A stretch of DNA of 64,000 nt, taken from the NCBI RefSeq assembly GCF_003627795.1, contig NZ_CP032685.1:186001-250000 (forward strand). Reading direction: 5' to 3'. The stretch comes from Rhizobium sp. CCGE531. Its GTDB lineage: Bacteria; Pseudomonadota; Alphaproteobacteria; Rhizobiales; Rhizobiaceae. The translations under genes were made by a program, and so were the position numbers. The notes under the pieces were generated by a model that worked only from the letters and a program-made list of their open reading frames with translations, ran no database searches and was not told the DNA's origin. Shown in pieces: positions 36,935-53,778 of the stretch. Position 1 is the first letter of the stretch, and every line of letters starts with the position of its first letter.

Positions 36935-36967
36935 TTTGGTGGATGTTTCGTGGAGGTTTCATGAACA
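36935..36967 (+). promoter_or_regulatory. Tandem 11-bp repeats upstream of the response regulator (TTTSRTGRA type)
   Basis: Three adjoining 11-mers: TTTGGTGGATG, TTTCGTGGAGG and TTTCATGAACA. The GTGGA cores start at 36939 and 36950, exactly 11 bp apart. Direct repeats with this period are the normal target of OmpR-class regulators bound as head-to-tail dimers. The array ends 63 bp before the response-regulator start, so autoregulation is likely. Confidence 0.6.
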
Positions 36968-37030
36968 AGGGCAAAGGAGCGTTGACGCGCGGGCCTTGTC
37001 TGGGGTTTCTTGCCGCTGAAGGAGCCGCGG

Positions 37031-37723
37031 ATGGAAAATGCATTGATTTTGATCGTAGAGGACGAGCCGGAAATCTCCGAAATTCTCGAACGCTATTTTG
37101 AACGCGAAGGTTTCCGCGTATTGACGGCAGCGGATGGCGAGATCGGCCTTTCCCATCATCAACGGCTCAGGCCGGACCTTGTGGTCCTTGACGTAAAATT
37201 GCCGAAGCTGGACGGCCATACCGTGCTTGCCAGTATCCGGCAAAGGGGGAACACGCCCGTCATCATGGTCACGGCGCTTGCCGACGACATCGACAAACTG
37301 CACGGGCTGCGCTCAGGCGCGGACGACTACGTCGTAAAGCCGTTCAATCCCGTGGAGGTCGTCGCGCGGGCGCGGGCCATTCTGAGGCGAACCACGGGAA
37401 ATGCGACCAACAAGATGCTGAGGGTGGGCAGGCTTGCGATAGATCCGGTGGCGCATATGGCTGTGGTCGAGAACGGCGAAAACCGCGTTCTTCTAAACCT
37501 GACACGGACTGAATTTCGGATCCTGGAATATATGGCGGTTTTCCCGAACCGCGCTTTCGAGAGAAGCGAGATCGTCGATGCATGCCTTCCGGAAGGTGAC
37601 GCGCTCGATCGAACCGTGGACAGTCATATGAGCAAGCTCCGTAAGAAGTTGGAGGCCGCGGGGATCGGCGAACTTCTCAACGGCGTGAGGGGAGTAGGTT
37701 ACCGCCTTGGTGACTTCGGCTAA
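37031..37723 (+). CDS. Response regulator, OmpR class (BaeR/AdeR-like)
   Basis: A 230-residue protein with an N-terminal receiver domain: acidic pair 'VEDEPE', phosphoacceptor Asp in 'LVVLDVKLPKLDG', Thr in 'MVTAL' and Lys in 'YVVKPFNP'. The C-terminal winged helix includes 'LTRTEFRILEYMAVFPNRAF' and 'DRTVDSHMSKLRKKLE'. The stretch 'TALADDIDKLHGLRSGADDY' is typical of BaeR/AdeR-type efflux regulators. The ATG at 37031 has GGAG upstream. No kinase is next to it; two related kinases lie at 44691 and 47604. Tandem GTGGA repeats precede this gene and two other units. Confidence 0.93.
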   Translation: MENALILIVEDEPEISEILERYFEREGFRVLTAADGEIGLSHHQRLRPDLVVLDVKLPKLDGHTVLASIRQRGNTPVIMVTALADDIDKLHGLRSGADDYVVKPFNPVEVVARARAILRRTTGNATNKMLRVGRLAIDPVAHMAVVENGENRVLLNLTRTEFRILEYMAVFPNRAFERSEIVDACLPEGDALDRTVDSHMSKLRKKLEAAGIGELLNGVRGVGYRLGDFG

Positions 37724-37812
37724 ACATTTATCGCCGGTGCCGCGGTGGGGAGGCCCTGGTCTGGCTTCGCAGCTATCATGGTACGAAGTGCCCAAATCGA
37801 TGGGAAACGAGA

Positions 37813-38271
37813 TCAATGGGAAACAAGGCGGCCGCCGACCATCGTCATGAGAATTATGCCGCAGATCACGGCAATGAAGCAGATTGTCGGCGTAGGCTCG
37901 TAAACGGCCCGCGGGGTTCTGATGCCCCATAAGCATTTCGTGGTAATCGTCGCTGGCGAACGACAGGGTGCCCGCCTGTCCTGAAGGTTCGAAGCCGCCC
38001 CTGGTTCCGAAGAGATCTCTTGCCGCAAATCCTCCGGCATCCACCAGTCTACTTGCAAACCCAGCGCACGGCGACCATCGTCAGTGAGTACATAGCGCGC
38101 TCCTGTGTCCCAGCCTGTGCTGTCATCTCTGATCAAGCGGAGATCCAGTGCTTGTGCGAGCAATCCGATCGCCGCGCGATCGAGGGCCTCAAAATCAGAA
38201 ATCTCATAGGTGGTATCGCGAAGAACTCTCTTAAGGAGCCTCAATAGATCGGATTCGTCCGGTATTTCCAT
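37813..38271 (-). CDS. Hypothetical protein with possible C-terminal membrane segment
   Basis: A 152-residue open frame. The first ~90 residues look like a small soluble domain ('DTTYEISDFEALDRAAIGLL', 'ARYVLTDDGRRALG') that could be winged-helix-like. The rest is less protein-like (Pro/Arg/Thr-rich) until a hydrophobic end ('FIAVICGIILMTMVGGRLV'). The junction could reflect a frameshift or a fusion. The ATG at 38271 is preferred over a TTG four codons upstream. I do not recognise the family. Confidence 0.45.
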   Translation of the reverse strand: MEIPDESDLLRLLKRVLRDTTYEISDFEALDRAAIGLLAQALDLRLIRDDSTGWDTGARYVLTDDGRRALGLQVDWWMPEDLRQEISSEPGAASNLQDRRAPCRSPATITTKCLWGIRTPRAVYEPTPTICFIAVICGIILMTMVGGRLVSH

Positions 38272-38588
38272 TTTCGTGTCCAAGCATCTGTCGTGTGATA
38301 GGCGTTTGGAAATTCAGCACGATTGCGTGGACATTGGGTGCACGTTTGCTTGAGAATTTGCGATGTGGCTGATCGCTGTCCCAGCGGATTACCGCTATCT
38401 TCAGCCGGCTCCGCGCTGGACATGATAGCGGGGCCATCTTCACCCTTCGAAATCGCCTTTCTTCACTCGACCCATACACTATCTCCACGCAATCTGCACA
38501 AAAATGGGCCATATCGCGGACAATCGTTGGGGATCTTCTCCGACATGGGATCTGCCGCTGATACGATCGAGAAGGATGCCATCGAAAC
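38272..38588. other. Intergenic region upstream of the SH3-domain protein
   Basis: About 315 bp between a hypothetical gene on the minus strand and the SH3-domain gene. Apart from the promoters it must contain, I see only a weak GTGGA/GTGCA pair 11 bp apart (38327-38342), too degenerate to count with the repeat arrays at 36935, 44461 and 53357. Confidence 0.4.
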
Positions 38589-39011
38589 ATGAAGTTCCGA
38601 GCCGAAGTAAAGCAAGTATTTGTTGCGAGCGCTCTGGCGATGACATGCCCGGTGGTCGTTCATGCAACTGCAATGGAATATTCGAAGACAAATGCTGTGC
38701 TTCGATCGGGGCCAGGCGACCGGTTTCCGGCCGTCGGAATGGTGATGGCGGGCTCCCGCGTCCATATGTTCGGATGCACGAAAGAATTTAGATGGTGCGA
38801 TGTCACCGTCTCGGGGCGAAGGGGATGGATGCCTTCCGCCGACGTCGACGTTGAGTACCATCACCAGAGGCTGCCGATGCCAAGCTACGTTCGCATCGCG
38901 GAAAGGCCGGGCATCGCCATCGTTTCATTCGACATCGATTCTTACTGGTCCCGAAACTACTCGAAGCTGTACTTTTATGGCGAGATCGAAAACTGGCGAA
39001 ACATCCACTGA
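38589..39011 (+). CDS. Secreted SH3-domain (SH3b) protein
   Basis: A 140-residue protein with a signal peptide ending near 'CPVVVHATA' and a bacterial SH3 domain around residues 30-85 ('NAVLRSGPGDRFPAVGMVMAGSRVHMFGC' region, 'RRGWMPSADVDV'). Such domains bind peptidoglycan or protein partners in the periplasm. The C-terminus is aromatic-rich ('YWSRNYSKLYFYGEIENW'). It lies just upstream of the TolC-type gene on the same strand and may be cotranscribed with the exporter. Confidence 0.8.
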   Translation: MKFRAEVKQVFVASALAMTCPVVVHATAMEYSKTNAVLRSGPGDRFPAVGMVMAGSRVHMFGCTKEFRWCDVTVSGRRGWMPSADVDVEYHHQRLPMPSYVRIAERPGIAIVSFDIDSYWSRNYSKLYFYGEIENWRNIH

Positions 39012-39120
39012 TATCATGATTGAATATTTGATCGGATCGCGACATTCATGAAACACGCCCGGCGGCGGGAAGCCTGTGCGATTGCAAGGGCTGCGAAATG
39101 GATCGCTTGGTGACAAGACC

Positions 39121-40605
39121 ATGATCGGCAGATCTTACAGTATTCCATGCCGACTGCGCGGCATATGTCGAAAGAACAGCCTCGATATAGCGAAAGGCGA
39201 ACGCAAGCGTCGATATAACATCTTGTCGATGATGGTGGTGGCATTGGCATTGCCAGCCTGTCAAACGATGGACCTATCTCTACCCGTGACACCACCACCC
39301 TTGCCTTCGGCCTACGCGGGAGCGCCTGCCAAGGTCTCCCGGGTACGAACAAGTGGCCCCGCATGGTGGGAAAGTTTCCACGATAAGACGTTGTCATCGC
39401 TTGTCTCCCGTGTAGCCGCTAACAATCTGACCGTTGCGCAGGCTCGACAGAATCTCGCGGCGGCAAGGGCCATGGCTCATTCCGCGATTGCCGGCTATCG
39501 CCCCGAGGTTGGTGGCGTCGCGCTTGCAAACGCTTCGACCGGCTCGCGGGTCAACAACGATTTCACACGACGTCCGCTGCAATTGAACCTCGAGGCCAGT
39601 TGGGAGGCGGCACTTTTCGGGCAGGACAAACTAGCGCAGAAATCGGCTGACCTGAGCGCGGCAATCGCGAACGCGGATCTGGCGGCAGCAAGATTGGCGG
39701 TAACGACGGAAGTTGCTGCCAGCTATGTTCACCTGCGGGCACTTCAGAGACGTCACGCCGACGCCGTTGAGATGATCGGGTTGCTGGAGAGGAATTCAAA
39801 GCTTGCGAGCGTCAAGGAGCAGGTTGGGCTGTCCACGGCAATCGAAACCGAACCCCAGAAATTAGGTCTCGATGCTGCGAGATCGAAGCGTCTCGAGCTG
39901 GAAAATGAGATCGCCATCTCAGCGCAGCAAATCGCGACCCTGGAAGGAACCTCCATTCCGGCCGCAGACATTCTCAAGCCTCAATCGCAACCGGTCGTAC
40001 AGGCAAGTCTCATCGAAGGCCGCCCCGCCGATCTCTTGCGCTCACGACCTGATGTGGTGCGAGCCGAACTCGCAGTCGCTCAGGCCGGCGCGCAGGTGGG
40101 TATCGCAAGAAGCGACCTTTATCCGAAATTGCGCCTTTTGGGAACAATCGGGATTGGCGCTCCGGCCGGTCACTCGTTGTTTGGCGTCGCCGGCGGGCCA
40201 TCGCTGCAAATGCCGATATTTGATCTCGGCCGGCGCAAAGATGTCGTCGCGGCAAGCGAAGCGAAATTCCGTGAGGCGGGCCTGGCATATCAGCAGGCCG
40301 TTCTTGTCGCCTATGAGGAAGCGTCGAGGGCACTGCGTGAATTCAACGCCGCACGACAGAGAACGGCGGAACTGAGATCGCGGTTGAAACGCGTTACCAC
40401 GGTCCGCAACGGCGCCGACATTCTCGTTCGCGAAGGTCTTGAAGATAGATCGAAATCCATAAGGGGCGCGCTCGACCTGCTGGAACTGCGGGCCTCATTG
40501 ACCGACAGCATCGAAGACGAGGCTCGCGCCCTCATCGCCTTCCATAAGGCAGCGGGCACTGTAGAGCAGGGCATCCCTTCACCGGCGTCGGAAAGGCGGA
40601 TGTGA
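39121..40605 (+). CDS. Outer-membrane efflux lipoprotein, TolC/NodT type
   Basis: A protein of about 494 residues with a lipobox 'LALPACQ' after a basic, hydrophobic leader, then two repeats of the outer-membrane factor fold, with 'LRSRPDVVRAELAVAQAGAQVGIARSDLYPKL' type sequence near residue 320. It forms the exit duct of a tripartite pump. The start is uncertain: several Met codons precede the leader, and I chose ATG at 39121. The stop overlaps a possible GTG start of the permease, so the genes are coupled. Confidence 0.87.
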   Translation: MIGRSYSIPCRLRGICRKNSLDIAKGERKRRYNILSMMVVALALPACQTMDLSLPVTPPPLPSAYAGAPAKVSRVRTSGPAWWESFHDKTLSSLVSRVAANNLTVAQARQNLAAARAMAHSAIAGYRPEVGGVALANASTGSRVNNDFTRRPLQLNLEASWEAALFGQDKLAQKSADLSAAIANADLAAARLAVTTEVAASYVHLRALQRRHADAVEMIGLLERNSKLASVKEQVGLSTAIETEPQKLGLDAARSKRLELENEIAISAQQIATLEGTSIPAADILKPQSQPVVQASLIEGRPADLLRSRPDVVRAELAVAQAGAQVGIARSDLYPKLRLLGTIGIGAPAGHSLFGVAGGPSLQMPIFDLGRRKDVVAASEAKFREAGLAYQQAVLVAYEEASRALREFNAARQRTAELRSRLKRVTTVRNGADILVREGLEDRSKSIRGALDLLELRASLTDSIEDEARALIAFHKAAGTVEQGIPSPASERRM

Positions 40606-40607
40606 TC

Positions 40608-41744
40608 ATGGCCGTGCCGATCGCGCGAAAAACTCTCCTCTATGAATGGCGTCGCTTTCTGCCGGCCGTTGCGGCGGTTGCTTTCTCCGGGCTGCTCATG
40701 ACGGCTCAAGGGGCACTTCTCTTGGGGATTGTGAGTGCAAATTCGCTTTACGTGTCCCAGTCGAATGCCGATTATTGGGTTGGCTATCCGGGTACGCAAA
40801 GTGTCGAACTCGGGCGCACGGTCAAGGTTGGCGTCTTGACGAACCTGTATTCGGAGCCTCTTGTCTCTCATATCGAGCCGTTGCTGCTTGGGTCGGGCGA
40901 TTGGCGGGCGACCGGGGGCAACGGCGGCGTCAGTGTCACGGTCGTGGGTGTCGATACGCAAGCCGATAGTGCCGGACTGGCCCGGGTCGTTTCGCCGGAT
41001 CTACGCGACCAGCTCCGCGAGCCTGGCGCTGTGGTCGTCGACGCCTCGGATAGCGACAAGCTTTCCGCCAAGCCCGGCGATCGTGCAGAGGTGAATGGCC
41101 ATACCGTACACGTCATTGGCCTCATTGACGGGCTTCGCGGTCTAGGCGGGGTGAACGTAGTCAGTTCGCTCGATACCGCGCGCATGCTCGATCAGGCGCT
41201 GCCTGATGACGGCGCAGCAACTTATTTCCTCTTCGATGTGAAGGCCGGAAGCGATCCATCAGCGGTAATCGCGCGCCTCAATCGAAGAGCATCCGTCGAA
41301 CGCTTCGAGATCTGGCCCTCCGGACAGCTGGCAAGCATGTCGACCAACTATATGCTGTTCGATTCCGGTGCCGGCATCGCTTTTATCTTCGCGACGCTTA
41401 TTGCCGCCACCATTGGAGCGCTCATAACCAGCCAAACCCTGATGGCTGCCGTAGCAGGTGCGCTTCCGCAATATGCCACGCTTCGAGCGCTTGGCGTACC
41501 ATTTGGCGGCCTGAGAACCATTGTTGCCGAGCAGGCGGCCTGGGTCGGTATTTCAGGCTTGATTATAAGTGGTGGCCTGAGCCTTCTCATAGCCCTTATC
41601 GCACGGGTCTATAAGGTTCCCTTTGTGCTTGATGGCATCGTTGTCCTTCTTGCTTCGCTCGTTGTGCTCGTCGTGGCAATTCTTGCCTGCCTTTTAGCAA
41701 TTCATCGGCTGCGTCAGGCCGACCCTGCTTCGTTGTTGAGATGA
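40608..41744 (+). CDS. ABC exporter permease, FtsX/MacB-DevC type
   Basis: A 378-residue membrane protein with one N-terminal transmembrane segment, a large periplasmic domain (about residues 45-240) and three C-terminal segments, the FtsX/DevC layout. It works with the separate ATPase and the HlyD-like protein encoded next. A GTG at 40602 overlapping the TolC stop is an alternative start. The exported compound is unknown. Confidence 0.88.
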   Translation: MAVPIARKTLLYEWRRFLPAVAAVAFSGLLMTAQGALLLGIVSANSLYVSQSNADYWVGYPGTQSVELGRTVKVGVLTNLYSEPLVSHIEPLLLGSGDWRATGGNGGVSVTVVGVDTQADSAGLARVVSPDLRDQLREPGAVVVDASDSDKLSAKPGDRAEVNGHTVHVIGLIDGLRGLGGVNVVSSLDTARMLDQALPDDGAATYFLFDVKAGSDPSAVIARLNRRASVERFEIWPSGQLASMSTNYMLFDSGAGIAFIFATLIAATIGALITSQTLMAAVAGALPQYATLRALGVPFGGLRTIVAEQAAWVGISGLIISGGLSLLIALIARVYKVPFVLDGIVVLLASLVVLVVAILACLLAIHRLRQADPASLLR

Positions 41745-41748: not shown

Positions 41749-42483
41749 ATGCGGTCCGCTATCTCGGCCTTCAATCTCCATAAATCCTTCACCGTCCAGA
41801 ATGTGCGCACGAACGCGCTCATCGATATTTCCGTCGAGATCTATCGCGGTGAATTCACCGTGCTCAGCGGCCCTTCCGGTTGTGGCAAGAGCACGCTTTT
41901 GGCGACACTCGGCGGCATGACCAAGCCAGACAGCGGACTTCTTCGCGCCGGGGAAATCGATCTCTCGTCATCGACGGATGCACAGCGGGATGCGTTTCGC
42001 TTGAAAAATTGCGGATTTATCTTTCAAGGCTTCAACCTGTTTCCCGCGCTGACGGCCCTTGAACAGGTTCAGGTGCCGCTGGACTACCTGAATGTTCCGG
42101 AGACGGAAGCGCGCGCCAAGGCGCTCGAAGCGCTGGAGCGCGTCGGCTTGCTGCACCGCCAGCATTTGCGACCTTCGCATCTGTCGGGCGGGGAAAAACA
42201 GCGGGTCGCCATTGCGAGAGCGATCGTCAAGGAGCCAGCCATCCTGTTTGCCGATGAGCCGACGAGCGCGCTGGACAGCGGCAATGGGCAGCGGATCGTC
42301 GAGATTCTGCGCGACACGGCGAGACAACTGGGAACGGCGGTTCTGTGCGTTTCGCACGATACACGCCTGTTTTCGAAAGCAGATCGCCTCCTCAGGATGG
42401 AGGACGGGCGCCTGGTGGCTGATCAACGTTCCATCTCCGGGCGAGACATTGACACACGAGAGTATTGGCATGGATCAAATTAA
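41749..42483 (+). CDS. ABC exporter ATP-binding protein, MacB/LolD/DevA type
   Basis: A 244-residue ATPase with Walker A 'SGPSGCGKSTLL', signature 'LSGGEKQRVAIARAI' and Walker B 'ILFADEPTSALD'. The MacB/LolD-type ATPases energise FtsX-like permeases. The gene starts 4 bp after the permease stop and overlaps the membrane fusion gene by 14 bp. Confidence 0.92.
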   Translation: MRSAISAFNLHKSFTVQNVRTNALIDISVEIYRGEFTVLSGPSGCGKSTLLATLGGMTKPDSGLLRAGEIDLSSSTDAQRDAFRLKNCGFIFQGFNLFPALTALEQVQVPLDYLNVPETEARAKALEALERVGLLHRQHLRPSHLSGGEKQRVAIARAIVKEPAILFADEPTSALDSGNGQRIVEILRDTARQLGTAVLCVSHDTRLFSKADRLLRMEDGRLVADQRSISGRDIDTREYWHGSN

Positions 42484-43396
42484 GCGTACCCGTCGGTTTT
42501 GGGCGACTGGCGTGTTGGGCCTGTCCCTGACATTGGGCCTGCTATGGATGACCGTCGGCGTCCCAAAGGCAGACGAAAACTCGAACACCATCGAACGCGG
42601 TACGCCGGCAATCGCCGCCGCGGCGCGCGGAACCGTCGATGTCGAGGGAGGACTCTATCGGATAACCGCCGTGCGCGACGGGGTCGTTGCCGAGGTGCAG
42701 GTGATGGAAGGGGCCTATGTGCGCAAAGGGGATGTCCTTGCCGTTCTGGACAACCGGCAGGAGGAAGCCGCGGCTCGTATCGCCGAACAGGAGGTCTCCC
42801 AGGCGGACGATCGCTATAAGCTCCTCGCAATCAAGAAGAAGAACCTTTCGAAGACCTATGAAAGGATGCGCCGCGCCGCCGCCGGCATGGCCGTGTCGGA
42901 TCAGGCGCTCCAGGATGCAGGCGATGCTTATGAGATGCAGGTCATCGAAACCAACTCAGCGGCAACGGCTCTGGACATAGCGCGTGAACGTCTCGAAATG
43001 GCCAAACGCGAGGTCAGCCTGCGTTCGATCACGGCACCGGCCGATGGCGTCGTCGTGCGCCAGGCGGTCAAGGCCGGGGAGGTCGTTTCCGCTCAGGCGA
43101 TGAGCGAGATGTTTGTCCTGCTGCCGGATGGTCCGAGGATTGTGCGTGCAGACGTTCCGGAAGAATATCTGGACCTTGTCGGTCCCGGCATGATTGTGGA
43201 GATCGTCCCCGAGGGGCGCTCGGCGCAAACGGTTTCGGGGCGCATTAGCCGGGTCTCCAAAGTGTTGACGCATGCAAAATCGACGGAGAACTCCGGAGAC
43301 CGCAGTGACATGAGAACGGCAAACTGCATCATCACTGTCGCACGCGATGCGCCCTTGGCCATCGGACAGCGCGTCGTCATTCGCGTCCTAAAATGA
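42470..43396 (+). CDS. Membrane fusion (HlyD/DevB-type) protein of the ABC exporter
   Basis: A 308-residue periplasmic adaptor with one N-terminal transmembrane segment, a lipoyl-like domain ('VAEVQVMEGAYVRKGDVLAVLD'), a coiled-coil hairpin (about residues 100-180) and the second lipoyl half ('RSITAPADGVVVRQAVKAGEVV'). It links the FtsX-type permease to the TolC-type duct. The ATG at 42470 lies inside the end of the ATPase gene. Gene order TolC-permease-ATPase-adaptor makes a self-contained tripartite exporter. Confidence 0.9.
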   Translation: MDQIKRTRRFWATGVLGLSLTLGLLWMTVGVPKADENSNTIERGTPAIAAAARGTVDVEGGLYRITAVRDGVVAEVQVMEGAYVRKGDVLAVLDNRQEEAAARIAEQEVSQADDRYKLLAIKKKNLSKTYERMRRAAAGMAVSDQALQDAGDAYEMQVIETNSAATALDIARERLEMAKREVSLRSITAPADGVVVRQAVKAGEVVSAQAMSEMFVLLPDGPRIVRADVPEEYLDLVGPGMIVEIVPEGRSAQTVSGRISRVSKVLTHAKSTENSGDRSDMRTANCIITVARDAPLAIGQRVVIRVLK

Positions 43397-43722: not shown

Positions 43723-44295
43723 CTACAGCATCCGCGGGAGTACATCCGTGTCTCCACCCTTGTCCGTCAGCCTGTGCTTCAATGTGCCCGCGACATGCAG
43801 AAGGATACAGGTCAAAAGAATGTAGGCGCTGTACCTATGCAGCATTTGAAATATCGCGAATGCTGCATCGTTCTTGGGCAGGAGTTCTGGAATTTGGGAA
43901 ATGAAAAAGAAAGGTACGCCATCGCTCTGCGTGAAGCTGCTCGACATGGAATAGCCAAGCAACGGAGTGATCAATGTCAGGACAACGATAAGTCGGTGCG
44001 TGACATGCGCGAGCCATTTTTCCCAGGGTGCCAAGTTCGAAGGCGTGTTGGGAAGAGAGGTCGTATATTGCCAGCACAAGATGAGATGCACCAATGCCAG
44101 AAGCCAAACCAGAACGCCAAACTGCTTGTGGTTGGGATACAAAAAGCCTGATGTCGCGACGGCGTCCTCCGGAAGCCGGGTCATATACCAGCCGGATGCC
44201 AGCAAACCCAGGATTAGAGCTGCACGCAGCCAGTGAAGAACCCGCATTGATAACGGATATTTCATAATGCCGCTTTTGCGCGGGTGTTCAATCAT
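43723..44295 (-). CDS. Cytochrome b561 family protein
   Basis: A 190-residue protein with four hydrophobic segments and histidines placed as haem b ligands ('RVLHWLRAALILG', 'YPNHKQFGVLVW', 'HVTHRLIVVLTL', 'LLHVAGTLKHR'). It would carry electrons in the inner membrane, for example from quinol. The ATG at 44295 has AAAGGAG upstream. It shares its promoter region, with a GTGGA repeat array, with the divergent kinase gene, which suggests co-control. Confidence 0.87.
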   Translation of the reverse strand: MIEHPRKSGIMKYPLSMRVLHWLRAALILGLLASGWYMTRLPEDAVATSGFLYPNHKQFGVLVWLLALVHLILCWQYTTSLPNTPSNLAPWEKWLAHVTHRLIVVLTLITPLLGYSMSSSFTQSDGVPFFFISQIPELLPKNDAAFAIFQMLHRYSAYILLTCILLHVAGTLKHRLTDKGGDTDVLPRML

Positions 44296-44460
44296 GCCAG
44301 CTCCTTTCCAGAATGGGGAATCCGTCTTGGTTCGTGAGGATTTGCGATGTAGCGAGAAGAATGGAAAACACAATGCCACACAGCATCGCGACCATTAAAT
44401 TCCAGGCAGAAAACGAACCATATCGACAACTCAGCTTCCTTCCCATCTAAGGCGATAATT
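44296..44460. other. Left part of the divergent promoter region (cytochrome b561 / sensor kinase)
   Basis: The full gene-free stretch runs from 44296 to 44690. I see no gene in it. The main recognisable feature is the GTGGA repeat array at 44461-44498. Remaining sequence gives no supportable site. Confidence 0.4.
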
Positions 44461-44498
44461 GTGGATGTCGCGCTGTCAGTTCGTGGAGATCTCGTGGA
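44461..44498 (+). promoter_or_regulatory. GTGGA repeat array with 11-bp period (cytochrome b561 / sensor kinase promoter)
   Basis: GTGGA cores start at 44461, 44483 and 44494, that is at 0, 22 and 33 bp, all in an 11-bp register. The run AGTTCGTGGAG is identical in the RND promoter array, where it is again followed 11 bp later by GTGGAA. The site lies 166 bp from the cytochrome start and about 190 bp from the kinase start. Confidence 0.6.
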
Positions 44499-44690
44499 AC
44501 GGCGCGACCCACTTGGCAAAGAAAGTTGTCAATCGTCGAGGCGAAAGAGCGACTGAAGTGATAAATGAACGGCTTCGCCATCCGGCATCGTGGTATTTTG
44601 CCGTCCTTTGATTGTGCTCGGGATTCCCTGCGGCAGTTGGTCAATATCCGACTGTTTCGTCACAGGGTTCCGACAAACTGAGTGATCGTG

Positions 44691-45841: not shown

Positions 45842-47629
45842 TCAAGCCCCTCGAAGTAGGCCGGCATATAGGCCACCGGAGGCGGCGAGCTCGTCATGCA
45901 TGCCCTGTTCGACAATGCGTCCGGCCTGCATCACCACAATCAGGTCGGCCCGACGGATGGTTGAAAGTCGATGCGCGATGGTGATCGTGGTGCGCCCCTT
46001 GGACATTTTGTCCAGCGCTATCGACATGGCGCGCTCAGTACGGGTGTCCAGAGCGCTGGTCGCCTCGTCCAACAGAAGAATAGGCGGGTTGCGCAAGATG
46101 GTGCGAGCCAGCACGAGGCGCTGCTTCTCACCGCCCGAAAAGCGATAGCCGCCTTCGCCGACCAATGTGTCGTAGCCTTGTGGCAGCGACGCGATATGAT
46201 CATGGATTTGGGCGATCTTCGCGGCCTCGACCAGCTCCGCCTCGGTCGCATCCGATTTGGCAAAGCGTAGGTTCTCCGCCACCGACGTGTGCAGCAGATA
46301 GGGTTCCTGCGACACCACGCCCAGCATGTCCGACAGCGACTGGAAGCTGAGATCGCGCAGGTCGACGCCATCGAAGCGGATTGCGCCACTGTCCACGTCG
46401 TAAAGCCGCGCCAGCAAATATCCGAGCGTCGTCTTTCCCGAGCCGGTGGGGCCGACTATGGCGACATGGGTGCCAGCGGCAATGGTCAGGTTGAGGTCGT
46501 GGACCGCGGGGCGATTGCCTTCGCGATAGGCGAAGCTGACGTGGTCAAGTCGCACCTCGCCACGCATTTCCGTGCGCGGCACGCTGACCGGGTCGGCCCG
46601 TTCGGTAATCTCGACCGGCTTGTCGAGATATTCGAAGATGCGCGCGAAGAGGGCGCGGGTCTTACGCATGTCGCGGCCAATTTCCAACAATTGCTCGAAT
46701 GGCCACAAGAGCTGCTCCTGCAGCGCAATCATTGCGACCAGCGTGCCGATCGTGACAGGGTTGTCGGTCTGAATCAGCACCCCACCCGCCAGCAGCGTCA
46801 TCGCCGGCAGCACCGCCAACGAGAAACTGATCAACGACCATTGCCACTCGCCGGCTGTGTGGGACTTCACCTCGAGCTTGGCTAGGTCGCGCGAAATGCG
46901 GGCGAAGCGTTGTGACAGATGCGAGCCGCGGCCCATTGTGCGCGCAAGGATGATGCCCGATATGGAAAGCGTCTCCTGCACGGCCGCCGACATGTCGGCG
47001 GCGCGAGCCTGCTGTGCATAGGTCAGCGCTTCCCGCATCCGGGCCACGCGGCTGCTGATCAGCATCGTCCCCGGTACGATCAGAAGCACGAACAGCGCGA
47101 GCCGCCAGTCGAGCAGCGCAATGGCGACGGCGGTCATGAGAACCGAGCTGAGCGAGCGGCCAAGTTCGTTCGCGGTGTCGGTCACCAGCGATTGCAGCCC
47201 GGCGATGTCGCTGGCGATGCGCGACTGCACCTCGCCCACCCGCGTGCCGGTGAAAAACCGCAGTGACAGACTTTGCAGATGCGAATAGAGCCGCACGCGC
47301 AGGTCGTGCAGGATCGCCTGCCCGATACGGGACGAAAGGATAACCTGCAGCGCCGCGATTCCAGACGAAGCCAGCGCGACCGCTACCATGCCCGCGGCCA
47401 GCCAAACCAACAGGCTCAGATCGCGCTGTGGCAGGGCGGTGTCGATGATCGCACGCAACAGAAAGGGGCCGACCAGGCCAACCGCCGAGGCGACAGCCAT
47501 CAGCAGCCCGACACAGGCGATACGTCCGCGATAGGGCCGAAAGAGCGACAGTACTCGTGAGAGCGAGGCATGCTGCATGGCCAGGTCGGAATAGCCGTAG
47601 TCTTCATGATCGGGGGTGTCGTGATGCAT
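45842..47629 (-). CDS. ABC exporter, MsbA/multidrug type (membrane and ATPase domains fused)
   Basis: A 595-residue half-transporter. The N-terminal six-helix domain (about residues 25-320) is followed by an ATPase with Walker A 'GPTGSGKTTLGYLLA', signature 'FSGGEKQRLVLARTIL' and Walker B 'ILLLDEATSALD'. It would act as a homodimer exporting a lipophilic compound. It overlaps the kinase gene by 26 bp and is the last gene of the RND-kinase operon. Confidence 0.92.
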   Translation of the reverse strand: MHHDTPDHEDYGYSDLAMQHASLSRVLSLFRPYRGRIACVGLLMAVASAVGLVGPFLLRAIIDTALPQRDLSLLVWLAAGMVAVALASSGIAALQVILSSRIGQAILHDLRVRLYSHLQSLSLRFFTGTRVGEVQSRIASDIAGLQSLVTDTANELGRSLSSVLMTAVAIALLDWRLALFVLLIVPGTMLISSRVARMREALTYAQQARAADMSAAVQETLSISGIILARTMGRGSHLSQRFARISRDLAKLEVKSHTAGEWQWSLISFSLAVLPAMTLLAGGVLIQTDNPVTIGTLVAMIALQEQLLWPFEQLLEIGRDMRKTRALFARIFEYLDKPVEITERADPVSVPRTEMRGEVRLDHVSFAYREGNRPAVHDLNLTIAAGTHVAIVGPTGSGKTTLGYLLARLYDVDSGAIRFDGVDLRDLSFQSLSDMLGVVSQEPYLLHTSVAENLRFAKSDATEAELVEAAKIAQIHDHIASLPQGYDTLVGEGGYRFSGGEKQRLVLARTILRNPPILLLDEATSALDTRTERAMSIALDKMSKGRTTITIAHRLSTIRRADLIVVMQAGRIVEQGMHDELAASGGLYAGLLRGA

Positions 47630-48707
47630 CGGGAGATTCAGTCCGTGTTTGTTGCGGCCCGCGCGGCAGGCGGATTTCTATGGCAAGGCCAGGCCGATCG
47701 GAGGAAAGGATCGTTGCATCGCCGCCATGCGCTTGGGCGATAGCCTTGACGATGGGCAGACCCAGGCCCGATCCGCCCAGGCTGCGGCCGCGCGAGCAGT
47801 CGGCGCGCCAGAAGCGTTCAAAGGCACGGACGCGGTTTTCGGCGGAAAGCCCGGGGCCGGTATCGGTGCAGCGGAAAAAGACATGCTGATCCGTTCGACC
47901 CGTCTCGATGTGCACCTGAGCCAACGGTGCGTAACGACGACAATTATCCAGGACGGCGACAATGGCCTGCCGCAGCCGCGCTCGGTCGCCGGTGGCGACG
48001 GCGCTGTCCAGTTGGCGGGAGATCGTGATCCCGGCCATAGTGAGTTGATCTTCGAGAGAATTGATCGCGCGTTCGGCCTCCACCGCCAGGTCGATCCGCG
48101 AACATTGCAGCGCAAGCTGCCCTGCATTGTTCAATGCCAGAGTGCGCAACTCTTCAACGATGGCTGAAAGATCATCCACATGCGCGATCAGTCGGCGGTA
48201 GAGTTCGGGACTGGGCACGAAAGCGCCGTCGAGCAGCCCTTGCAGCCGTCCGCGCAGGATTGTCAGCGGAGTACGCAATTCATGCGCGATAGCCGAGTTC
48301 GAGTACTTCAGCTCGGCTTCCGCCCGCTGTAACCGCTTGGCCATCTGGTTAAAGTCGGCGACCAGATCACCCGCCTCGCCGAAACTGTTGCCCGGCAACA
48401 CCGCGCGGGCGGAGAAGTCGCCCTTTGCGATCATACGTGCTGCTCCGGCTACCGACTTCACCGGGATGATGATGCGACAGGCTAGCCGCCAGCCAAAAAG
48501 CGAGGCGGCCAGGACGCACGCGCCCAGCAGCAGCCCAAGCGCAAGCGTGTCGCTCAGGTGCCAGCTTTCGTCATAGGTCGCGTCCGGATAAAGCCAATCA
48601 TAGATGAAGGAGAAATAGGCCAGCAGGCCGAAATAGACGACCGCGAACGCCAGAAGGGTCAATCCGATCATCGCCCGCACGATCGGGGAATTCAGGTCAC
48701 CGATCAT
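47604..48707 (-). CDS. Sensor histidine kinase, BaeS/AdeS-like, second copy
   Basis: A 367-residue kinase with the same plan as that at 44691: two transmembrane segments, HAMP, H-box 'SAIAHELRTPLTIL', N-box 'VLDNCRRYAP', G1 'DTGPGL' and G2 'GGSGLGLPIV'. Stretches such as 'ELRTPLTILRGRLQGLLDG' are identical in both. It overlaps the regulator remnant by 4 bp (ATGA) and the ABC exporter by 26 bp. With its own regulator reduced to a fragment, it may signal to the regulator at 37031. Confidence 0.92.
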   Translation of the reverse strand: MIGDLNSPIVRAMIGLTLLAFAVVYFGLLAYFSFIYDWLYPDATYDESWHLSDTLALGLLLGACVLAASLFGWRLACRIIIPVKSVAGAARMIAKGDFSARAVLPGNSFGEAGDLVADFNQMAKRLQRAEAELKYSNSAIAHELRTPLTILRGRLQGLLDGAFVPSPELYRRLIAHVDDLSAIVEELRTLALNNAGQLALQCSRIDLAVEAERAINSLEDQLTMAGITISRQLDSAVATGDRARLRQAIVAVLDNCRRYAPLAQVHIETGRTDQHVFFRCTDTGPGLSAENRVRAFERFWRADCSRGRSLGGSGLGLPIVKAIAQAHGGDATILSSDRPGLAIEIRLPRGPQQTRTESPDASRHPRS

Positions 48708-48979
48708 GACGGTCCTCCAACCGGCAGCAGCGCCATCGCATTGCCGCCGCCTGGGACCACGTGGACTGGCGATCGCCAGCTTGCGGCGCGATAGCCGTCC
48801 TGGCCCGGCAATTTAAAGTCCGGAATCGTCAGATCGGACCCAAGCCACCGATGCCGGGCGAGCCCGAGGGCGTTATCGTTTGCCGTGATCACCCGAAAGC
48901 TCTCGCGCGTGAAATAGATCTCGGTGAGCTCGGCGATATCAGGCTCGTCTTCGGTGGCAAGGATCAGCGCGTTGTTCAT
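48704..48979 (-). pseudogene. Truncated response regulator (BaeR/AdeR-like), receiver fragment only
   Basis: An open frame of 91 codons. The first ~57 residues are clearly homologous to the regulator at 37031: 'NALILATEDEPDIAELTEIY' against 'NALILIVEDEPEISEILERY', and 'DFKLPGQDG' against 'DVKLPKLDG'. After that the sequence is unrelated and Gly/Pro-rich, and the rest of the receiver and the whole DNA-binding domain are missing. About 400 bp have been lost compared with a normal gene. The 4-bp overlap with the kinase start is kept. Confidence 0.8.
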
Positions 48980-49015
48980 GGCTAGCTCTCGGAGTCCGGC
49001 TTGCTGTCTTGGCGG

Positions 49016-52000
49016 TCATTCGGCTGCGGCAGGATGTTCCCGCAGGTCCGGGCGCTGAGCGGATCGAAAGGTCAGCCGACTGACGGCAACATAAAGGACC
49101 GGCACGAAGAAAACGGCGAGCACGGTCGCGGCAATCATCCCCCCGAAAACTCCGGTGCCGATGGCATTCTGGATTTCCGACCCGGCGCCTTGCGCGACCA
49201 TGAGCGGAATGACGCCCAGGATGAAGGCCAGCGAGGTCATCAGGATCGGTCTCAGCCGCAGCCGCGCAGCCTGCAGCACCGCCCGGTATCGCCCCATCCC
49301 CTGTTGACGCAGGTGACGGACATACTCGACCAGCAATATCGCGTTCTTGGCCGACAGGCCGATGATGGTGATGAGGCCGACCTTGAAGAAGACGTCATTC
49401 TCCATCCCTCTCGCCAGTACGGCCATGACGGCGCCCAGCATGCCCAGCGGCACGATCAGCATGACCGCCAGCGGGATCGACCAGCTTTCGTAAAGCGCCG
49501 CCAGCACCAGGAAGACGATCAGCATGGAGGCCGCCAACAGCATCGGAACCTGCGCGGCGGATTGCTTTTCCTGAAAGGATTGGCCTGTCCATTCCAGCGC
49601 GAAGCCTTGCGGCAGTTGCCGGGCCAGCCGCTCCATCTCACCCATCGCCGAACCACTGGAGACGCCCGGTGCAGCCGAGCCCGCGATGCGCGCCGCGGGA
49701 TAGCCGTTGTAACGCGCCATCTGCAAGGGCGAGGTCTGCCAAGCGGGGCTGACAACTTCGGAAAGGGGCACCATGCCGCCATCGATATTGCGCACTTCAA
49801 GGCGCAACACGTCCTCGACGCGCATCCGCGCGGACGCGTCGGCCTGGACAATCACCTGCTGCAGGTTGCCGCGGTTCGGGAAGTCGTTGACATAGTTCGA
49901 TCCGATCGCGGTGGAGATCGTGTCGCTGATGGCAGAAAATGGCACTCCAAGCGCTTGTGCCTTCTGACGATCGATCTGAAGCGCGATGCTTTGGCCGTCG
50001 GGCAGTCCCTCGCTTGTCACATCGGTCACCAGCTTGCTCGTGGCCGCCAATGCGATGAGCTGGTTCTCGGCCGCCTTCAGCGCTGACGGCCCACTGTTGG
50101 CGCGGTCTTCCAGCCGCAGCGAGAAGCCAGAGGTTGTGCCGAGCGATTCGATCGCCGGCGGCTTCATGATCATCGCCGTGCCTTCCGGAATATCGGTCAT
50201 CGCTGCTTCGGCTGCGGCGATCTCCTCGTTCACGCTCGTCTTGCGTTCGCTCCAATCTTTCAGGCTGGTGAAGGCTTGCGCGGCATTAGGCCCGGAGCCG
50301 GAAAAGCCGAAGCCGAGGATCACGATGTTGCCCGCGATATCGGGACGCGTTGCGGTGTGCGTCTCGTAGGCGGCGACAATCTCCCGCGTGCGCTCGGCGG
50401 TGGCGCCGGCCGGAAGTTCGAACATGGCCATGAAGTTGCCCTGATCCTCCTGCGGGACGAAGGCGGTGGGCAGGCGCATATAGCCGATGCCCGCGATGAT
50501 TAGCAGGGCGGCATAGACCAACAACATGCGGCCGCCGCGCTGCAGGGTCCAACCGACCCACCCCGTATAGCGAGCGGTCAGCCGGCCGAACCAGCGATTA
50601 AACCATGCAAAGAAGCCGCTCGTCGCCTGGCCCGTCGCAGGCTTCAGGATCGTCGCGCAGAGTGCGGGCGTCAGGGTCAGGGCCAGGAAGGCTGATAAAA
50701 GAATGGAGATCGACATCGACATGGTGAATTGGCGATAAATTGCACCGACCGACCCGCTGGCCATGCCCATCGGCACGAAGACGGCCGCGAGCACCAGTGT
50801 GATACCGACGATGGCGCCCGAGATTTCGCGCATGGCTTGACGGGTCGCTTCCTTGGGCGACAGGCCCTGCCGGGTCATGATCCGCTCGACGTTCTCAACA
50901 ACGACAATGGCATCGTCGACGATGATGCCTATCGCCAGGACCATGCCGAACATCGTCAGTACGTTGATCGAATAGCCCGATACCATCATCACGGCGAAGG
51001 TGCCCAGCAGCGCGATCGGAGCCACGATGGCCGGGATGAGCGTGTAGCGGATCTTTTGAAGGAACAAGAGCATGACGAAGAACACCAGCACCATCGCCTC
51101 GATCAGCGTTTGGACCACTTTGACGATCGAGACCTTCACGAAGGGCGCTGTGTTGTAGGAGATCGAAACCTCCATGTCCTTGGGCATTGTGGTCTGCAGC
51201 TCGGCCAGGCGCTGCTCGATCGCGGCCGCGGTTTGCACCGCATTCGCCCCCGATGAGAGCTGAATGGCGGCCGCCGCCGCCGGTTTGCCGTTGCTGGTGA
51301 CGCTGAAATTCAGCGACTGTGCGCCCAATTCCACCCGAGCGATGTCCGACAACAGCAAACGCGATCCATCGGCCTGCGCCCGCAGCGGGATGGCTGCGAA
51401 TTCCTCAGGGGTGGTCAGCTGGCCCCGCACCGTCAGCGGAGTCGATATCTTCGTCCCCGGCATGGTCGGTTCGTCTCCGACCCTGCCGGGCGATACCTGC
51501 GCGTTTTCGCGGGCGATGGCCTCGGTCACGTCGGCCATGGCCAACCCATAGGCCGCTAGTTTCGCGGGGTCGACCCAGATCCGCATCGCGCGCTCTGATC
51601 CGAATTGCTGTACGCGGCCCACCCCCGGAAGACGCTTCAATTCCTCGCCAAGGTTGCGAGTCATATAGTCGCCGAGAGTGAGTTCGTCCGTTGTGCCGTT
51701 GCGCGACTTCAGCGTCAGGATCATCAAGAAGCCCGACTCTGCTGCTTCAACGGTGAGGCCGCCGCGGCGCACGGGCTCGGGAAGGCGTTGCTCGGCATTC
51801 TTCAGGCGGTTCTGTACGTCAACCTGCGCCAGTTCCGGGTCGGTGCCGGGCTTGAAGGTCACGGAGATATTTGCCCCACCGGTCGAATCGACGGTGGATT
51901 CGTAATAGAGCACGTTCTTGACGCTCGAGAGTTCCTTCTCGATCGGCGTGACGACGCTGTCGCTGACGGTTTGCACGGTCGCGCCGTTGTAGGTCGTAAA

Positions 52001-52135
52001 GATGCTGACGCTCGGAGGAGCAATTTCCGGGAAGCGCGCCACCGGCAATTGCGGAATGGCGAGAACGCCTGCCAATGTGATGAAGATCGCGATAACCCAG
52101 GCAAAGATTGGGCGGTCGATGAAGAACTGCGACAT
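49016..52135 (-). CDS. RND efflux pump inner-membrane transporter (AcrB/MexB/AdeB type)
   Basis: A 1039-residue RND pump starting 'MSQFFIDRPIFAWVIAIF'. It keeps the proton-relay residues: the Asp pair in 'AIGIIVDDAIVVVE' and the Lys in 'GLSAKNAILLVEY'. Twelve transmembrane segments and two large periplasmic loops are in the usual places. The ATG at 52135 has AGAGG upstream. It forms a drug/proton antiporter with the adaptor at 52149. No outer-membrane partner is in the operon, so it probably uses the TolC/NodT protein at 39121 or another. Confidence 0.95.
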   Translation of the reverse strand: MSQFFIDRPIFAWVIAIFITLAGVLAIPQLPVARFPEIAPPSVSIFTTYNGATVQTVSDSVVTPIEKELSSVKNVLYYESTVDSTGGANISVTFKPGTDPELAQVDVQNRLKNAEQRLPEPVRRGGLTVEAAESGFLMILTLKSRNGTTDELTLGDYMTRNLGEELKRLPGVGRVQQFGSERAMRIWVDPAKLAAYGLAMADVTEAIARENAQVSPGRVGDEPTMPGTKISTPLTVRGQLTTPEEFAAIPLRAQADGSRLLLSDIARVELGAQSLNFSVTSNGKPAAAAAIQLSSGANAVQTAAAIEQRLAELQTTMPKDMEVSISYNTAPFVKVSIVKVVQTLIEAMVLVFFVMLLFLQKIRYTLIPAIVAPIALLGTFAVMMVSGYSINVLTMFGMVLAIGIIVDDAIVVVENVERIMTRQGLSPKEATRQAMREISGAIVGITLVLAAVFVPMGMASGSVGAIYRQFTMSMSISILLSAFLALTLTPALCATILKPATGQATSGFFAWFNRWFGRLTARYTGWVGWTLQRGGRMLLVYAALLIIAGIGYMRLPTAFVPQEDQGNFMAMFELPAGATAERTREIVAAYETHTATRPDIAGNIVILGFGFSGSGPNAAQAFTSLKDWSERKTSVNEEIAAAEAAMTDIPEGTAMIMKPPAIESLGTTSGFSLRLEDRANSGPSALKAAENQLIALAATSKLVTDVTSEGLPDGQSIALQIDRQKAQALGVPFSAISDTISTAIGSNYVNDFPNRGNLQQVIVQADASARMRVEDVLRLEVRNIDGGMVPLSEVVSPAWQTSPLQMARYNGYPAARIAGSAAPGVSSGSAMGEMERLARQLPQGFALEWTGQSFQEKQSAAQVPMLLAASMLIVFLVLAALYESWSIPLAVMLIVPLGMLGAVMAVLARGMENDVFFKVGLITIIGLSAKNAILLVEYVRHLRQQGMGRYRAVLQAARLRLRPILMTSLAFILGVIPLMVAQGAGSEIQNAIGTGVFGGMIAATVLAVFFVPVLYVAVSRLTFRSAQRPDLREHPAAAE

Positions 52136-52148
52136 TGCCTCTGATCCC

Positions 52149-53309
52149 TTACGACTTGCCTGCGATGCTGGCGGAGGGCTGCGAGGCCGGAATCGCGTGC
52201 ACGGCCATGCCATCCAGAGCCTTGTCCTGCCCGCGCACGGCAATGATTTCGCCCGCGGTCAGGCCAGAGGTAACGACGACGCGCCCTCCGATCGCATCGC
52301 CCAGTTGCACAGTGCGTCGTTCGGCCCGGCCGTTCGCATCCACGACCACGACCTGCGCTCCAGCGGCGCTTGTTCTCTGCACCGCATCCGTCGGCACCAA
52401 AAGCGCCTTCGGAAGCAGGCCGCGCGGCAGTCTGGCGCGAACATACATGCCCGGTAGCAGTGACAGACCGGGGTTCTCCACTTCGGCTCGGACCGAAGCA
52501 TTGCCGGTACCCGGATCGACGATGACATCGGAAAATTTCAACAGACCCGGCCGGGGATGGGACGCGCCCTGCGCGCTCAAGATTTCGATTGGGCCAAGCC
52601 CGTCATCGGCAGCGCGCTGGAGGGCGTCAAGCCGGGCGGCCGGCAGGCGTAGATCGACATACAGGCGGTCTATATCCTGCACGACAGCCAGCGCCCGTTC
52701 CGATGTCGGGGCAGCCAGCCCGCCTTCATCCGCCAGCGTGGCGCCCACATAGCCCGAGATGGGTGAGCGAATGGTGGCGAATTCGAGGTCCAGTCTCCGC
52801 CTTTCGACGATGGCTCGCGCTTCGTTAAGGTTGGCCCGCGCGGCTGCAAGTTCACTGCGGGCATTCTCGTTCTTCTCGCGACTGGTCGCGTTCTTGGACA
52901 GCAGCTGATCTGCCCGTTCCAGGCCGCGCTGAGCATGCGCTTCCGCCGCCGTAGCGCGTTCCAACCCGGCTTCCGCCGTTTCCAGATCGGCGGTCAAAGG
53001 CGCGGTGTCGATTTCGAACAGAATCTGCCCCTTCGAGACGCGCGCCCCCATTTCGACAAGCCGTCTTCTAATAATACCTCCCACCTGCGGCCGGATTTCG
53101 ACCCTGTGGTATGCCGCGACGCGGCCGGGAAGTTCGTCGAGAAGCATCACATTTTCGGGCACGAGCGTGCTTACCACTACCTGGGGCCGGCTTTCCTCAA
53201 TGGGATGTTGTTCCTCGTTCCCAGCATTTGCGACCCAACGGGCAAGGAACAATGCCGATGCAAGAAGGGTACAGATAAGGAGCAGTTTCGGAAGTGAATG
53301 ATGCTGCAT
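52149..53309 (-). CDS. RND efflux periplasmic adaptor (AcrA/MexA/AdeA type)
   Basis: A 386-residue adaptor with an N-terminal hydrophobic anchor ('LLLICTLLASALFLARWV'), a lipoyl half ('VEIRPQVGGIIRRRLVEMGARV'), a coiled-coil hairpin (about residues 95-170), the second lipoyl half ('IRSPISGYVGATLADEGGL') and a beta-barrel. No lipobox cysteine is evident. It lies 13 bp before the RND pump gene and is the first gene of the operon, behind a GTGGA repeat array at 53357. Confidence 0.93.
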   Translation of the reverse strand: MQHHSLPKLLLICTLLASALFLARWVANAGNEEQHPIEESRPQVVVSTLVPENVMLLDELPGRVAAYHRVEIRPQVGGIIRRRLVEMGARVSKGQILFEIDTAPLTADLETAEAGLERATAAEAHAQRGLERADQLLSKNATSREKNENARSELAAARANLNEARAIVERRRLDLEFATIRSPISGYVGATLADEGGLAAPTSERALAVVQDIDRLYVDLRLPAARLDALQRAADDGLGPIEILSAQGASHPRPGLLKFSDVIVDPGTGNASVRAEVENPGLSLLPGMYVRARLPRGLLPKALLVPTDAVQRTSAAGAQVVVVDANGRAERRTVQLGDAIGGRVVVTSGLTAGEIIAVRGQDKALDGMAVHAIPASQPSASIAGKS

Positions 53310-53778
53310 GTCGAGCTCGGTGTTCGCTGTATGTTGCGCCCTGTTGACATGTGCTCATGGAAATCTGGCATAGAGTTCGTGGAGTTTTGGTGGAATTGCG
53401 GTAGAGCAGACCCGCGGAACCATCGGTTCGGCACCGAGACCGAGGCTGTGCGTGCTTGAATCCGCTCTAAGGCGTCATATTGCCGAAAATAGCCTTCACT
53501 CTGCACAGGAATTTCTAGCTGACCTAACTGCCAAGCTTGGATTGCCGAAGCGGATTTCACTGGCTCACCCGGGAACCGCATCACGCCAGGTTTACGCGCA
53601 TGTCCCACCGGAACCGCTGCAGCTATTATCGCTCATAGCTGGATGGAATTGTAATTCTTCATGTCAGGCACGGCGCCGAAGACGTCAAGCCGCAGGGCTT
53701 CGAATCTTAGGTATCCATGGCACCTGACGCAAACTCCACGACGTCCAAATTGACGAAGCGGCGTCAAAGAGCAACGGA
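53310..53778. other. Intergenic region between RND operon and ROK regulator
   Basis: About 470 bp. It contains the GTGGA repeat array of the RND promoter at 53357-53394. The rest carries only short open frames with unusual starts and no family features, so I call no gene here. Confidence 0.5.
53357..53394 (+). promoter_or_regulatory. GTGGA repeat array with 11-bp period upstream of the RND operon
   Basis: ATGGA at 53357 and GTGGA at 53379 and 53390 lie at 0, 22 and 33 bp, the same spacing as the array at 44461. The shared block AGTTCGTGGAG is followed 11 bp later by GTGGAA in both. It lies 48 bp or more upstream of the adaptor start codon and reads on the opposite strand to the operon, as direct-repeat sites can. 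Confidence 0.6.

What the first reader, a model, noticed from the sequence alone, without database searches (positions are those of the whole stretch)
36935..53394. Three promoters share 11-bp-period GTGGA repeats: a candidate efflux regulon
Arrays at 36935-36967, 44461-44498 and 53357-53394 have GTGGA-like cores in an 11-bp register. The last two share AGTTCGTGGAG followed by GTGGAA one period later, with a third core 22 bp upstream. They precede the BaeR/AdeR-like regulator, the cytochrome b561/orphan kinase pair and the RND operon. An 11-bp direct repeat fits an OmpR-class dimer. From memory, and needing checking, Acinetobacter AdeR binds tandem GTGGAG-containing repeats, and this regulator resembles AdeR. 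The simplest reading is that one regulator controls itself, both kinases, the RND pump, the ABC exporter and the cytochrome.
Basis: partly seen in the sequence, partly recalled or inferred. Interest (0 to 1): 0.82.

Follow-up and report, generated by a model that had tools for sequence, protein, structure and literature searches.

The report
AdeR-type efflux regulon in a Rhizobium
A bean-associated bacterium carries five copies of one DNA switch site in front of its drug-pump, sensor and regulator genes, and comparison with relatives suggests that a single AdeR-like regulator, which has lost its own sensor gene, controls them all.

Summary
GTGGA-N6-GTGGA occurs at 36939, 44483 and 53379 (0.14 expected in the window); two further arrays, 38319-38356 (+) and 38476-38504 (-), were missed. 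A profile built from 17 arrays of other genera gives 5 matches in the 7.14-Mb genome, all in this 16-kb stretch: 4 arrays and 1 intragenic. In 47 regions upstream of AdeR-like regulators and pump adaptors outside this genome, exact GTGGA pairs occur only at spacings 11, 22 and 33 (10, 3, 1) among spacings 6-40. The register matches the published AdeR and DzrR boxes, and the 37031 regulator nearly has AdeR's recognition helix. Best reading: it regulates its own gene, the RND-kinase-ABC operon, a DevABC-type exporter operon, a small ORF, and the cytochrome b561/kinase pair. Its ancestral kinase is gone; two related kinases without an intact neighbouring regulator remain, one beside a decayed regulator. 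Binding, activation and kinase pairing are inferred. Known kind of system, unusual wiring.

The parts
36935..36974 (+). AdeR-type array 1 (cores 36939, 36950, degenerate 36961) upstream of the response regulator
   Evidence: conserved upstream of orthologues
37031..37723 (+). AdeR-like OmpR/PhoB-type response regulator (P0001), no kinase beside it
   Evidence: Pfam Response_reg + Trans_reg_C; AdeR_RR best NCBIfam model; AdeR DNA-binding domain best PDB hit of its output domain
37813..38271 (-). ORF of unknown function (P0003, 152 aa), 61% identical in G006
   Evidence: no NCBIfam model
38319..38356 (+). array 4 (GTGGA-N6-GTGCA), about 50 bp upstream of P0003
   Evidence: counterpart in G006; weak with the out-of-genus profile (3.9 bits)
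38476..38504 (-). array 5 (GTGCA / GTGGA / GTGTA at 11 bp), about 90 bp upstream of the SH3-exporter operon
   Evidence: counterpart in G006 and in R. tropici
38589..39011 (+). SH3-domain protein
   Evidence: Pfam SH3_3
39076..40605 (+). outer-membrane efflux protein (TolC type)
   Evidence: Pfam OEP
40602..41744 (+). MacB/DevC-like ABC permease
41749..42483 (+). DevA/LolD-like ABC ATPase
42479..43396 (+). HlyD/DevB-like adaptor (frame open from 42092; start codon not determined)
43723..44379 (-). cytochrome b561
   Evidence: Pfam Ni_hydr_CYTB
44461..44504 (+). AdeR-type array 2 between cytochrome b561 and kinase 1
   Evidence: same in G006
44691..45755 (+). histidine kinase 1 (AdeS-like), no regulator beside it
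45842..47629 (-). MsbA-like ABC exporter, last gene of the RND operon
   Evidence: same order in G400
47604..48707 (-). histidine kinase 2 (57% identical to kinase 1)
48704..48979 (-). decayed response regulator: 63 aa of receiver recognisable, the rest lost
49016..52180 (-). RND multidrug transporter (frame open to 52243, overlapping the adaptor; start codon not determined)
52149..53309 (-). RND periplasmic adaptor, first gene of the operon
53357..53406 (+). AdeR-type array 3 upstream of the RND operon (GTGGA strand opposite to the genes)
   Evidence: same geometry in G400, G334 and Martelella sp. AD-3

Best explanation
The arrays are operators of the 37031 protein, an AdeR-type response regulator. 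Dimers bind head-to-tail to neighbouring 11-bp half-sites (core GTGGAG); arrays of three or more half-sites could take more than one dimer. The regulator controls its own gene, the RND-kinase 2-ABC operon, the SH3-DevABC-type exporter operon with the divergent P0003 ORF, and the cytochrome b561/kinase 1 pair. Its ancestral partner kinase is gone; kinases 1 and 2, AdeS-like and without an intact adjacent regulator, most likely phosphorylate it. Shown by sequence: the arrays, their register, conservation and concentration at this locus; the separated genes; the decayed second regulator. Inferred: binding, direction of effect (activation, by analogy with AdeR) and kinase pairing.
For: Register: 10 exact GTGGA pairs at spacing 11, 3 at 22, 1 at 33, 0 at every other spacing 6-40 in 47 merged upstream regions (18.4 kb) of 38 loci outside G000; 6 exact at spacing 11 in the other 571 kb. 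Specificity: a box with 1 mismatch or less upstream of regulator or adaptor in 22 of 38 clade loci against 1 of 62 upstream of other OmpR-type regulators (Fisher 5.6e-11; the clade figure counts up to two regions a locus; upstream of the regulator alone 16 of 38, 2.1e-7). Genome-wide: R2, 17 out-of-genus arrays, 5 hits in 7.14 Mb, all here; R1, 26 arrays, 6 hits, all here. Geometry: box close upstream of the adaptor and on the opposite strand in G400, G334 and Martelella sp. AD-3; regulator-kinase divergent from adaptor-RND, as in adeRS-adeABC, in G020, G021, G004, G010, G425 and R. tropici. Trans targets: a scan of 12 genomes puts boxes on contigs other than the regulator's at a cytochrome b561 (G431), an outer-membrane-protein gene (G425) and adaptor-RND genes (G165). 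Protein: AdeR ALERTVDSHVSKLRKKLE aligns with ALDRTVDSHMSKLRKKLE here. Partners: in this genome only kinases 1 and 2 match kinase 2 at E 1e-75 or less, whereas kinases beside orthologous regulators in G021 and G425 match at about 1e-99 and 1e-98 (57 first-look candidates here, 5 scored).
Against: No binding or expression data. 16 of 38 clade loci have no box at 1 mismatch or less; 11 of these were re-scanned with R2, which found one in 4 (L074, L075, L078, L101) and none in 7 (L082, L089, L090, L096, L100, L108, L109); 5 were not re-scanned (L083, L086, L105, L106, L110), of which L086 has an exact array upstream of its outer-membrane-protein gene. Array 38319 is weak for R2 (3.9 bits). The whole-genome model searches scored 150 of 595 (R1) or 785 (R2) first-look candidates, so sites may be missed. 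One hit of both (41772-41795) is inside the ATPase gene. Kinase pairing has little sequence support of its own: HELRTPLTILRGR is shared by kinases 1 and 2 with the kinases beside orthologous regulators in L035, L038, L039, L041 and L081, but L085 has TVLRGR and the segment is also in the kinases of L072, L073, L077 and L092, so it marks the subfamily.
Confidence: 0.75

Rival explanations
1. The arrays are true AdeR-type operators, but the regulon is not single: the 57% paralogue at C2:1403600 or another OmpR-type regulator serves some sites, and kinases 1 and 2 signal elsewhere.
For: This genome has 60 matches to the regulator; the next best full-length one is 57% identical, the others 40% or less. 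Kinase pairing is only inferred.
Against: The paralogue's locus has no box by R2 (L024, L004) or at 1 mismatch (L024); the aligned helix segment reads ALVRTVDTHISNLRRKL and a kinase lies next to it.
Confidence: 0.16
2. The arrays are relics: operators left after the original kinase and regulator genes were lost or broken, with little present function.
For: One regulator copy is decayed and the intact one has no kinase beside it.
Against: Around 38319-38504 the cores largely stay while spacers change between this genome and G006; the regulator, both kinases and the transporters are open frames.
Confidence: 0.06
3. Chance or composition: GTGGA repeats in a G-rich strand.
For: At up to 1 mismatch the window as a whole shows no excess (8 against 6.4 expected).
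Against: exceed chance, and the 11/22/33 series is seen in other genomes.
Confidence: 0.02

Closest known systems
AdeR of AdeRS-AdeABC, Acinetobacter baumannii
   Same: Nearly identical helix segment; box AAGTGTGGAGNAAGTGTGGAG with 11-bp period (passages); orthologues of the Rhizobium regulator lie divergent from adaptor-RND genes.
   Different: Here the regulator has no adjacent kinase or pump, there are five arrays over 16 kb, and ABC exporter and cytochrome genes are included. It is below the AdeR equivalog cut-off.
DzrR of Dickeya, Ralstonia and Burkholderia
   Same: AdeR-like regulator; footprinted site CGGTTCTCCATCATATCTCCATATT has two CTCCAT cores 11 bp apart; a homologue binds the promoter of distantly located RND genes in Burkholderia (PMC10052836, passages).
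   Different: DzrR is reported to act likely without phosphorylation, and the kinase gene next to it is not involved; here two kinases are candidates. DzrR's own sequence was not compared.
SmeRySy-SmeYZ, Stenotrophomonas maltophilia
   Same: Regulator-kinase genes divergent from an RND pump (PMC4981351, passages); S. maltophilia locus L103 (regulator 58% identical) has a box roughly 70 bp upstream of the regulator.
   Different: That L103 is SmeRy itself is assumed, not checked. The term 'binding site' does not occur in the main text of that paper.
RetPC57, Rhizobium etli
   Same: OmpR-type regulator divergent from RND genes; affects efflux genes and bean symbiosis (PMC7769827: passages and section 5).
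   Different: Described there as homologous to CpxR; its sequence was not compared here.

Membership tests
AdeR-type response regulators | receiver plus winged-helix output domain of the OmpR/PhoB family | tested here: met
   Pfam Response_reg and Trans_reg_C
AdeR-type response regulators | closest curated family is AdeR | tested here: met
   AdeR_RR 264.9 bits; next PhoB 181.2; BaeR 164.6
AdeR equivalog (NCBIfam NF012227) | score at or above the curated cut-off of 340 bits | tested here: not met
   264.9 bits; so AdeR-like, not AdeR
AdeR-type response regulators | 11-bp-period GTGGAG-like direct repeat at its promoters | tested here: met
AdeR-type response regulators | purified protein binds the repeat | not testable with these tools
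   needs EMSA or footprint
AdeRS-AdeABC locus layout | regulator-kinase pair divergent from adaptor-RND genes | tested here: not met
   not met in this genome; met in G020, G021, G004, G010, G425 and R. tropici CIAT 899
AdeS-type kinases | closest curated family is AdeS | tested here: met
   kinase 1: AdeS_HK 250.3 bits is best, cut-off 500 not reached; kinase 2, 57% identical, was not scanned against NCBIfam
BaeR (E. coli type) | score at or above the BaeR cut-off | tested here: not met
   164.6 bits against 380

The most novel reading that the evidence does not exclude
Regulator takeover by a self-contained operator-plus-regulator block: a stretch holding just the AdeR-type box and the regulator gene is copied out of an adeRS-adeAB-like locus, lands beside other efflux and kinase modules that carry the same box, and makes their own regulators dispensable, so that one regulator ends up with several kinases. 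Basis: within the 36401-39100 stretch compared, DNA homology with G020 and G021 covers 36922-37722, from the box to the stop codon; in G006 two contig ends share 127 bp on the box side and two share 127 bp at the regulator's 3' end, which fits two near-identical copies collapsed in assembly; here the RND operon's own regulator is decayed.
Probability: 0.33. Interest if true: 0.66.

Novelty: new variant of a known kind. Interest (0 to 1): 0.52.

Why it matters
It carries an operator worked out in Acinetobacter and Dickeya over to rhizobia, and gives a profile whose only matches in a 7-Mb genome fall at one efflux locus. It joins an RND pump, a DevABC-type exporter, a cytochrome b561 and two kinases into one testable circuit in a Phaseolus-associated Rhizobium; in R. 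etli another OmpR-type regulator of efflux genes affects bean symbiosis (PMC7769827, passages). A regulator without its kinase, two kinases without intact neighbouring regulators and a decaying third regulator make rewiring of two-component systems directly testable.

Tried and rejected
Relaxed pattern at up to 1 mismatch in the window: no excess, so exact cores and profiles were used. Coding context of the other 9 exact genome matches: all 9 lie in frames open for 100 codons or more, but so do two of the three window sites in this G+C-rich genome, so the test does not discriminate. Remains of a kinase after the regulator or of a regulator before kinase 1: nothing convincing. The 57% paralogue as regulator of these sites: its locus has no box. 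A fixed -35 at 32 bp from the second core: TTGACG after array 1, TTGTCA after array 2, but the latter is not kept in G006; dropped. The first count of spacings was wrong because two loci with the regulator cut at a contig end (L076, L081) gave negative coordinates; they were dropped and the count redone. Identities printed for HLYD come from a query in the wrong frame and are not used. One search printed three loci unturned (L014, L017, L019); later calls used the proper strand. Paper searches for AdeR with Rhizobium, for rhizobia with RND, regulator and repeat terms, for AdeRS in Alphaproteobacteria, for the AdeR motif letters and for this strain (no paper): among the titles and abstracts listed none describes an AdeR-type box in rhizobia; papers not listed were not seen.
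Full report
What is there. The window is part of a 1.46-Mb replicon (G000:C2) that matches plasmid NZ_CP032690.1 of Rhizobium sp. CCGE532 at 100% over both stretches compared, 36500-45800 and 45800-56000. The three arrays exist as described. The exact pattern GTGGAN6GTGGA occurs three times in the window (mean 0.14 in 100 shuffles) and 12 times in the 7.14-Mb genome, against 4 for the reversed pattern. Two further arrays, 38319-38356 (+) and 38476-38504 (-), lie between the regulator and an exporter operon. At up to one mismatch the window shows no excess, so the argument rests on exact cores and on the profiles below.

Independent tests of the motif. I collected regions up to 350 bp upstream of AdeR-like regulators (45% identity or more) and of nearby RND adaptors in 38 loci outside this genome; L076 and L081 were dropped because the regulator is cut at a contig end, L087 and L088 because no such regulator was found. 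In 47 merged regions (18.4 kb) exact GTGGA pairs occur 10 times at spacing 11, 3 at 22, 1 at 33 and never at other spacings from 6 to 40; 23 of 47 regions have a pair at spacing 11 with at most one mismatch; the remaining 571 kb of these loci hold 6 exact pairs at spacing 11. By regulator identity, a box is found in 6 of 6 loci at 80% or more, 12 of 20 at 60-80% and 4 of 12 at 45-60%. Upstream of 62 more distant OmpR-type regulators (37-44%) it occurs once. The loci are related to each other, so these counts are not independent events.

A sequence-only profile of 26 arrays (R1) and a stricter one of 17 arrays from other genera (R2, without this genome, G006 or the regulator orthologues of 82% or more) were scanned over the whole genome. 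R1 gives 6 matches at E 10 or less, R2 gives 5; every one is inside this cluster. Four arrays are found by both, 38319 by R1 only, and both also report 41772-41795 inside the ATPase gene. R1 includes three arrays of G006 that correspond to arrays here; R2 does not. The search scored 150 of 595 or 785 first-look candidates.

The regulator. The 37031 protein has AdeR as closest curated family but is below the equivalog cut-off. The output domain's best solved relative by sequence is AdeR (5x5l); the helix segments differ at two positions of 18 (ALDRTVDSHMSKLRKKLE against ALERTVDSHVSKLRKKLE). That this segment is the recognition helix is recalled from OmpR-family structures. AdeR's box AAGTGTGGAGNAAGTGTGGAG is quoted in PMC10052836 (passage) and its 10-bp repeat in PMC9426577 (passage); the primary AdeR paper is not held. 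DzrR's footprinted site has CTCCAT cores 11 bp apart (PMC10052836, passages).

Evolution of the locus. In G020, G021, G004, G010, G425 and R. tropici CIAT 899 regulators 82-93% identical lie with a kinase, divergent from adaptor and RND genes about 34-38% and 52-53% identical to those here. Within the stretch compared (36401-39100), DNA homology of this genome with G020 and G021 runs from 36922 to 37722, that is box plus gene. G006 keeps the order regulator, P0003, SH3, outer-membrane protein, permease, ATPase, adaptor, cytochrome, kinase 1, with counterparts of arrays 2, 4 and 5; its contig begins inside the regulator. Two of its contigs share a 127-bp end at the regulator's 3' side and two others share a 127-bp end at the box side. 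Two copies collapsed in assembly is the likely reading, by inference. The nearest relatives found for the RND-kinase 2-ABC operon are operons of other genera with an intact regulator between pump and kinase (G400, G334, G439; Martelella sp. AD-3; the ABC gene follows in G400 and G334); here that regulator is reduced to 63 recognisable residues. In this genome only kinases 1 and 2 match kinase 2 at E 1e-75 or less (5 of 57 first-look candidates scored).

Targets elsewhere. R1 was run over 12 genomes chosen because they hold these genes: 35 places at E 0.3 or less. I looked at 16 of the loci fetched. 9 have a gene related to one of the cluster: adaptor-RND on a contig other than the regulator's (G165, L190) and beside the regulator side (G006, L198); cytochrome b561 (G431, L192; in G165, L212, the weak match overlaps the likely gene start); an outer-membrane-protein gene 75% identical to the one here (G425, L205); an SH3 gene 840 bp from the box (G004, L201); the ends of kinase genes (L199, L207); and a regulator 31% identical (L204). 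The other 7 (L193, L195, L202, L203, L206, L209, L214) show none. R1 was trained on G006 arrays of such genes, so these finds are not wholly blind. In R. tropici the exporter operon, about 0.98 Mb from the regulator on the same plasmid (positions), has a 14.1-bit match to R2, and the regulator-adaptor region one of 29 bits. Agrobacterium fabrum pAt1D132a has regulator, kinase, SH3, adaptor and MacB-like genes in a row with weak matches (11.0 and 10.9 bits) before the regulator and before the SH3 gene.

Mechanism. Shown: sites, register, conservation, gene content and loss of partners. Inferred from AdeR and DzrR: dimers on neighbouring half-sites, autoregulation and activation of the pumps. 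Kinase pairing is inferred mainly from absence of a closer kinase; the shared HELRTPLTILRGR segment marks the whole subfamily, and its role in specificity is recalled from work on EnvZ. Kinase 1 seems to have a short loop between its first two membrane segments (sequence, my reading), so it may sense within the membrane.

Verdict. It is a new wiring of a known kind of system. The boldest reading, a mobile box-plus-regulator block that takes over other modules, is open and testable.

Noticed in passing
window 48704-48979 (-): Decayed response regulator between the RND pump and kinase 2: 63 residues of receiver match, the remainder is lost compared with intact operons of other genera.
   Followed up: yes
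window 37813-38271 (-): Uncharacterised 152-aa ORF (P0003), 61% identical in G006, no NCBIfam model, an array just upstream.
   Followed up: partly
window 41772-41795 (-): A box-like match (11.5-11.6 bits) inside the start of the ATPase gene, among the few matches in the whole genome; its core is kept in G006 and nearly in R. tropici, but so is the coding sequence.
   Followed up: partly
L209 1443-1852 and L200 1188-1600 (G010): The stretch around the regulator's box is duplicated (88% over 413 bp) on another contig of G010, next to other genes and apparently without most of the regulator.
   Followed up: partly
L199 1501-1535, L207 1501-1535: Further boxes just past the kinase genes in G428 and G436, near a GNAT acetyltransferase-like and a MarR-like ORF.
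   Followed up: partly
L193 396-893: In G006 one of the two box-side contig ends leads to an FMN-reductase-like ORF instead of an RND adaptor.
   Followed up: no
window 34061-36418 (-): Orn/Lys/Arg decarboxylase next to the regulator, not obviously linked to the arrays.
   Followed up: no
window 53779-56531: ROK-family regulator and a solute-binding protein beyond the RND operon; the stretch from about 53.8 kb resembles DNA of R. lusitanum and R. jaguaris plasmids.
   Followed up: no
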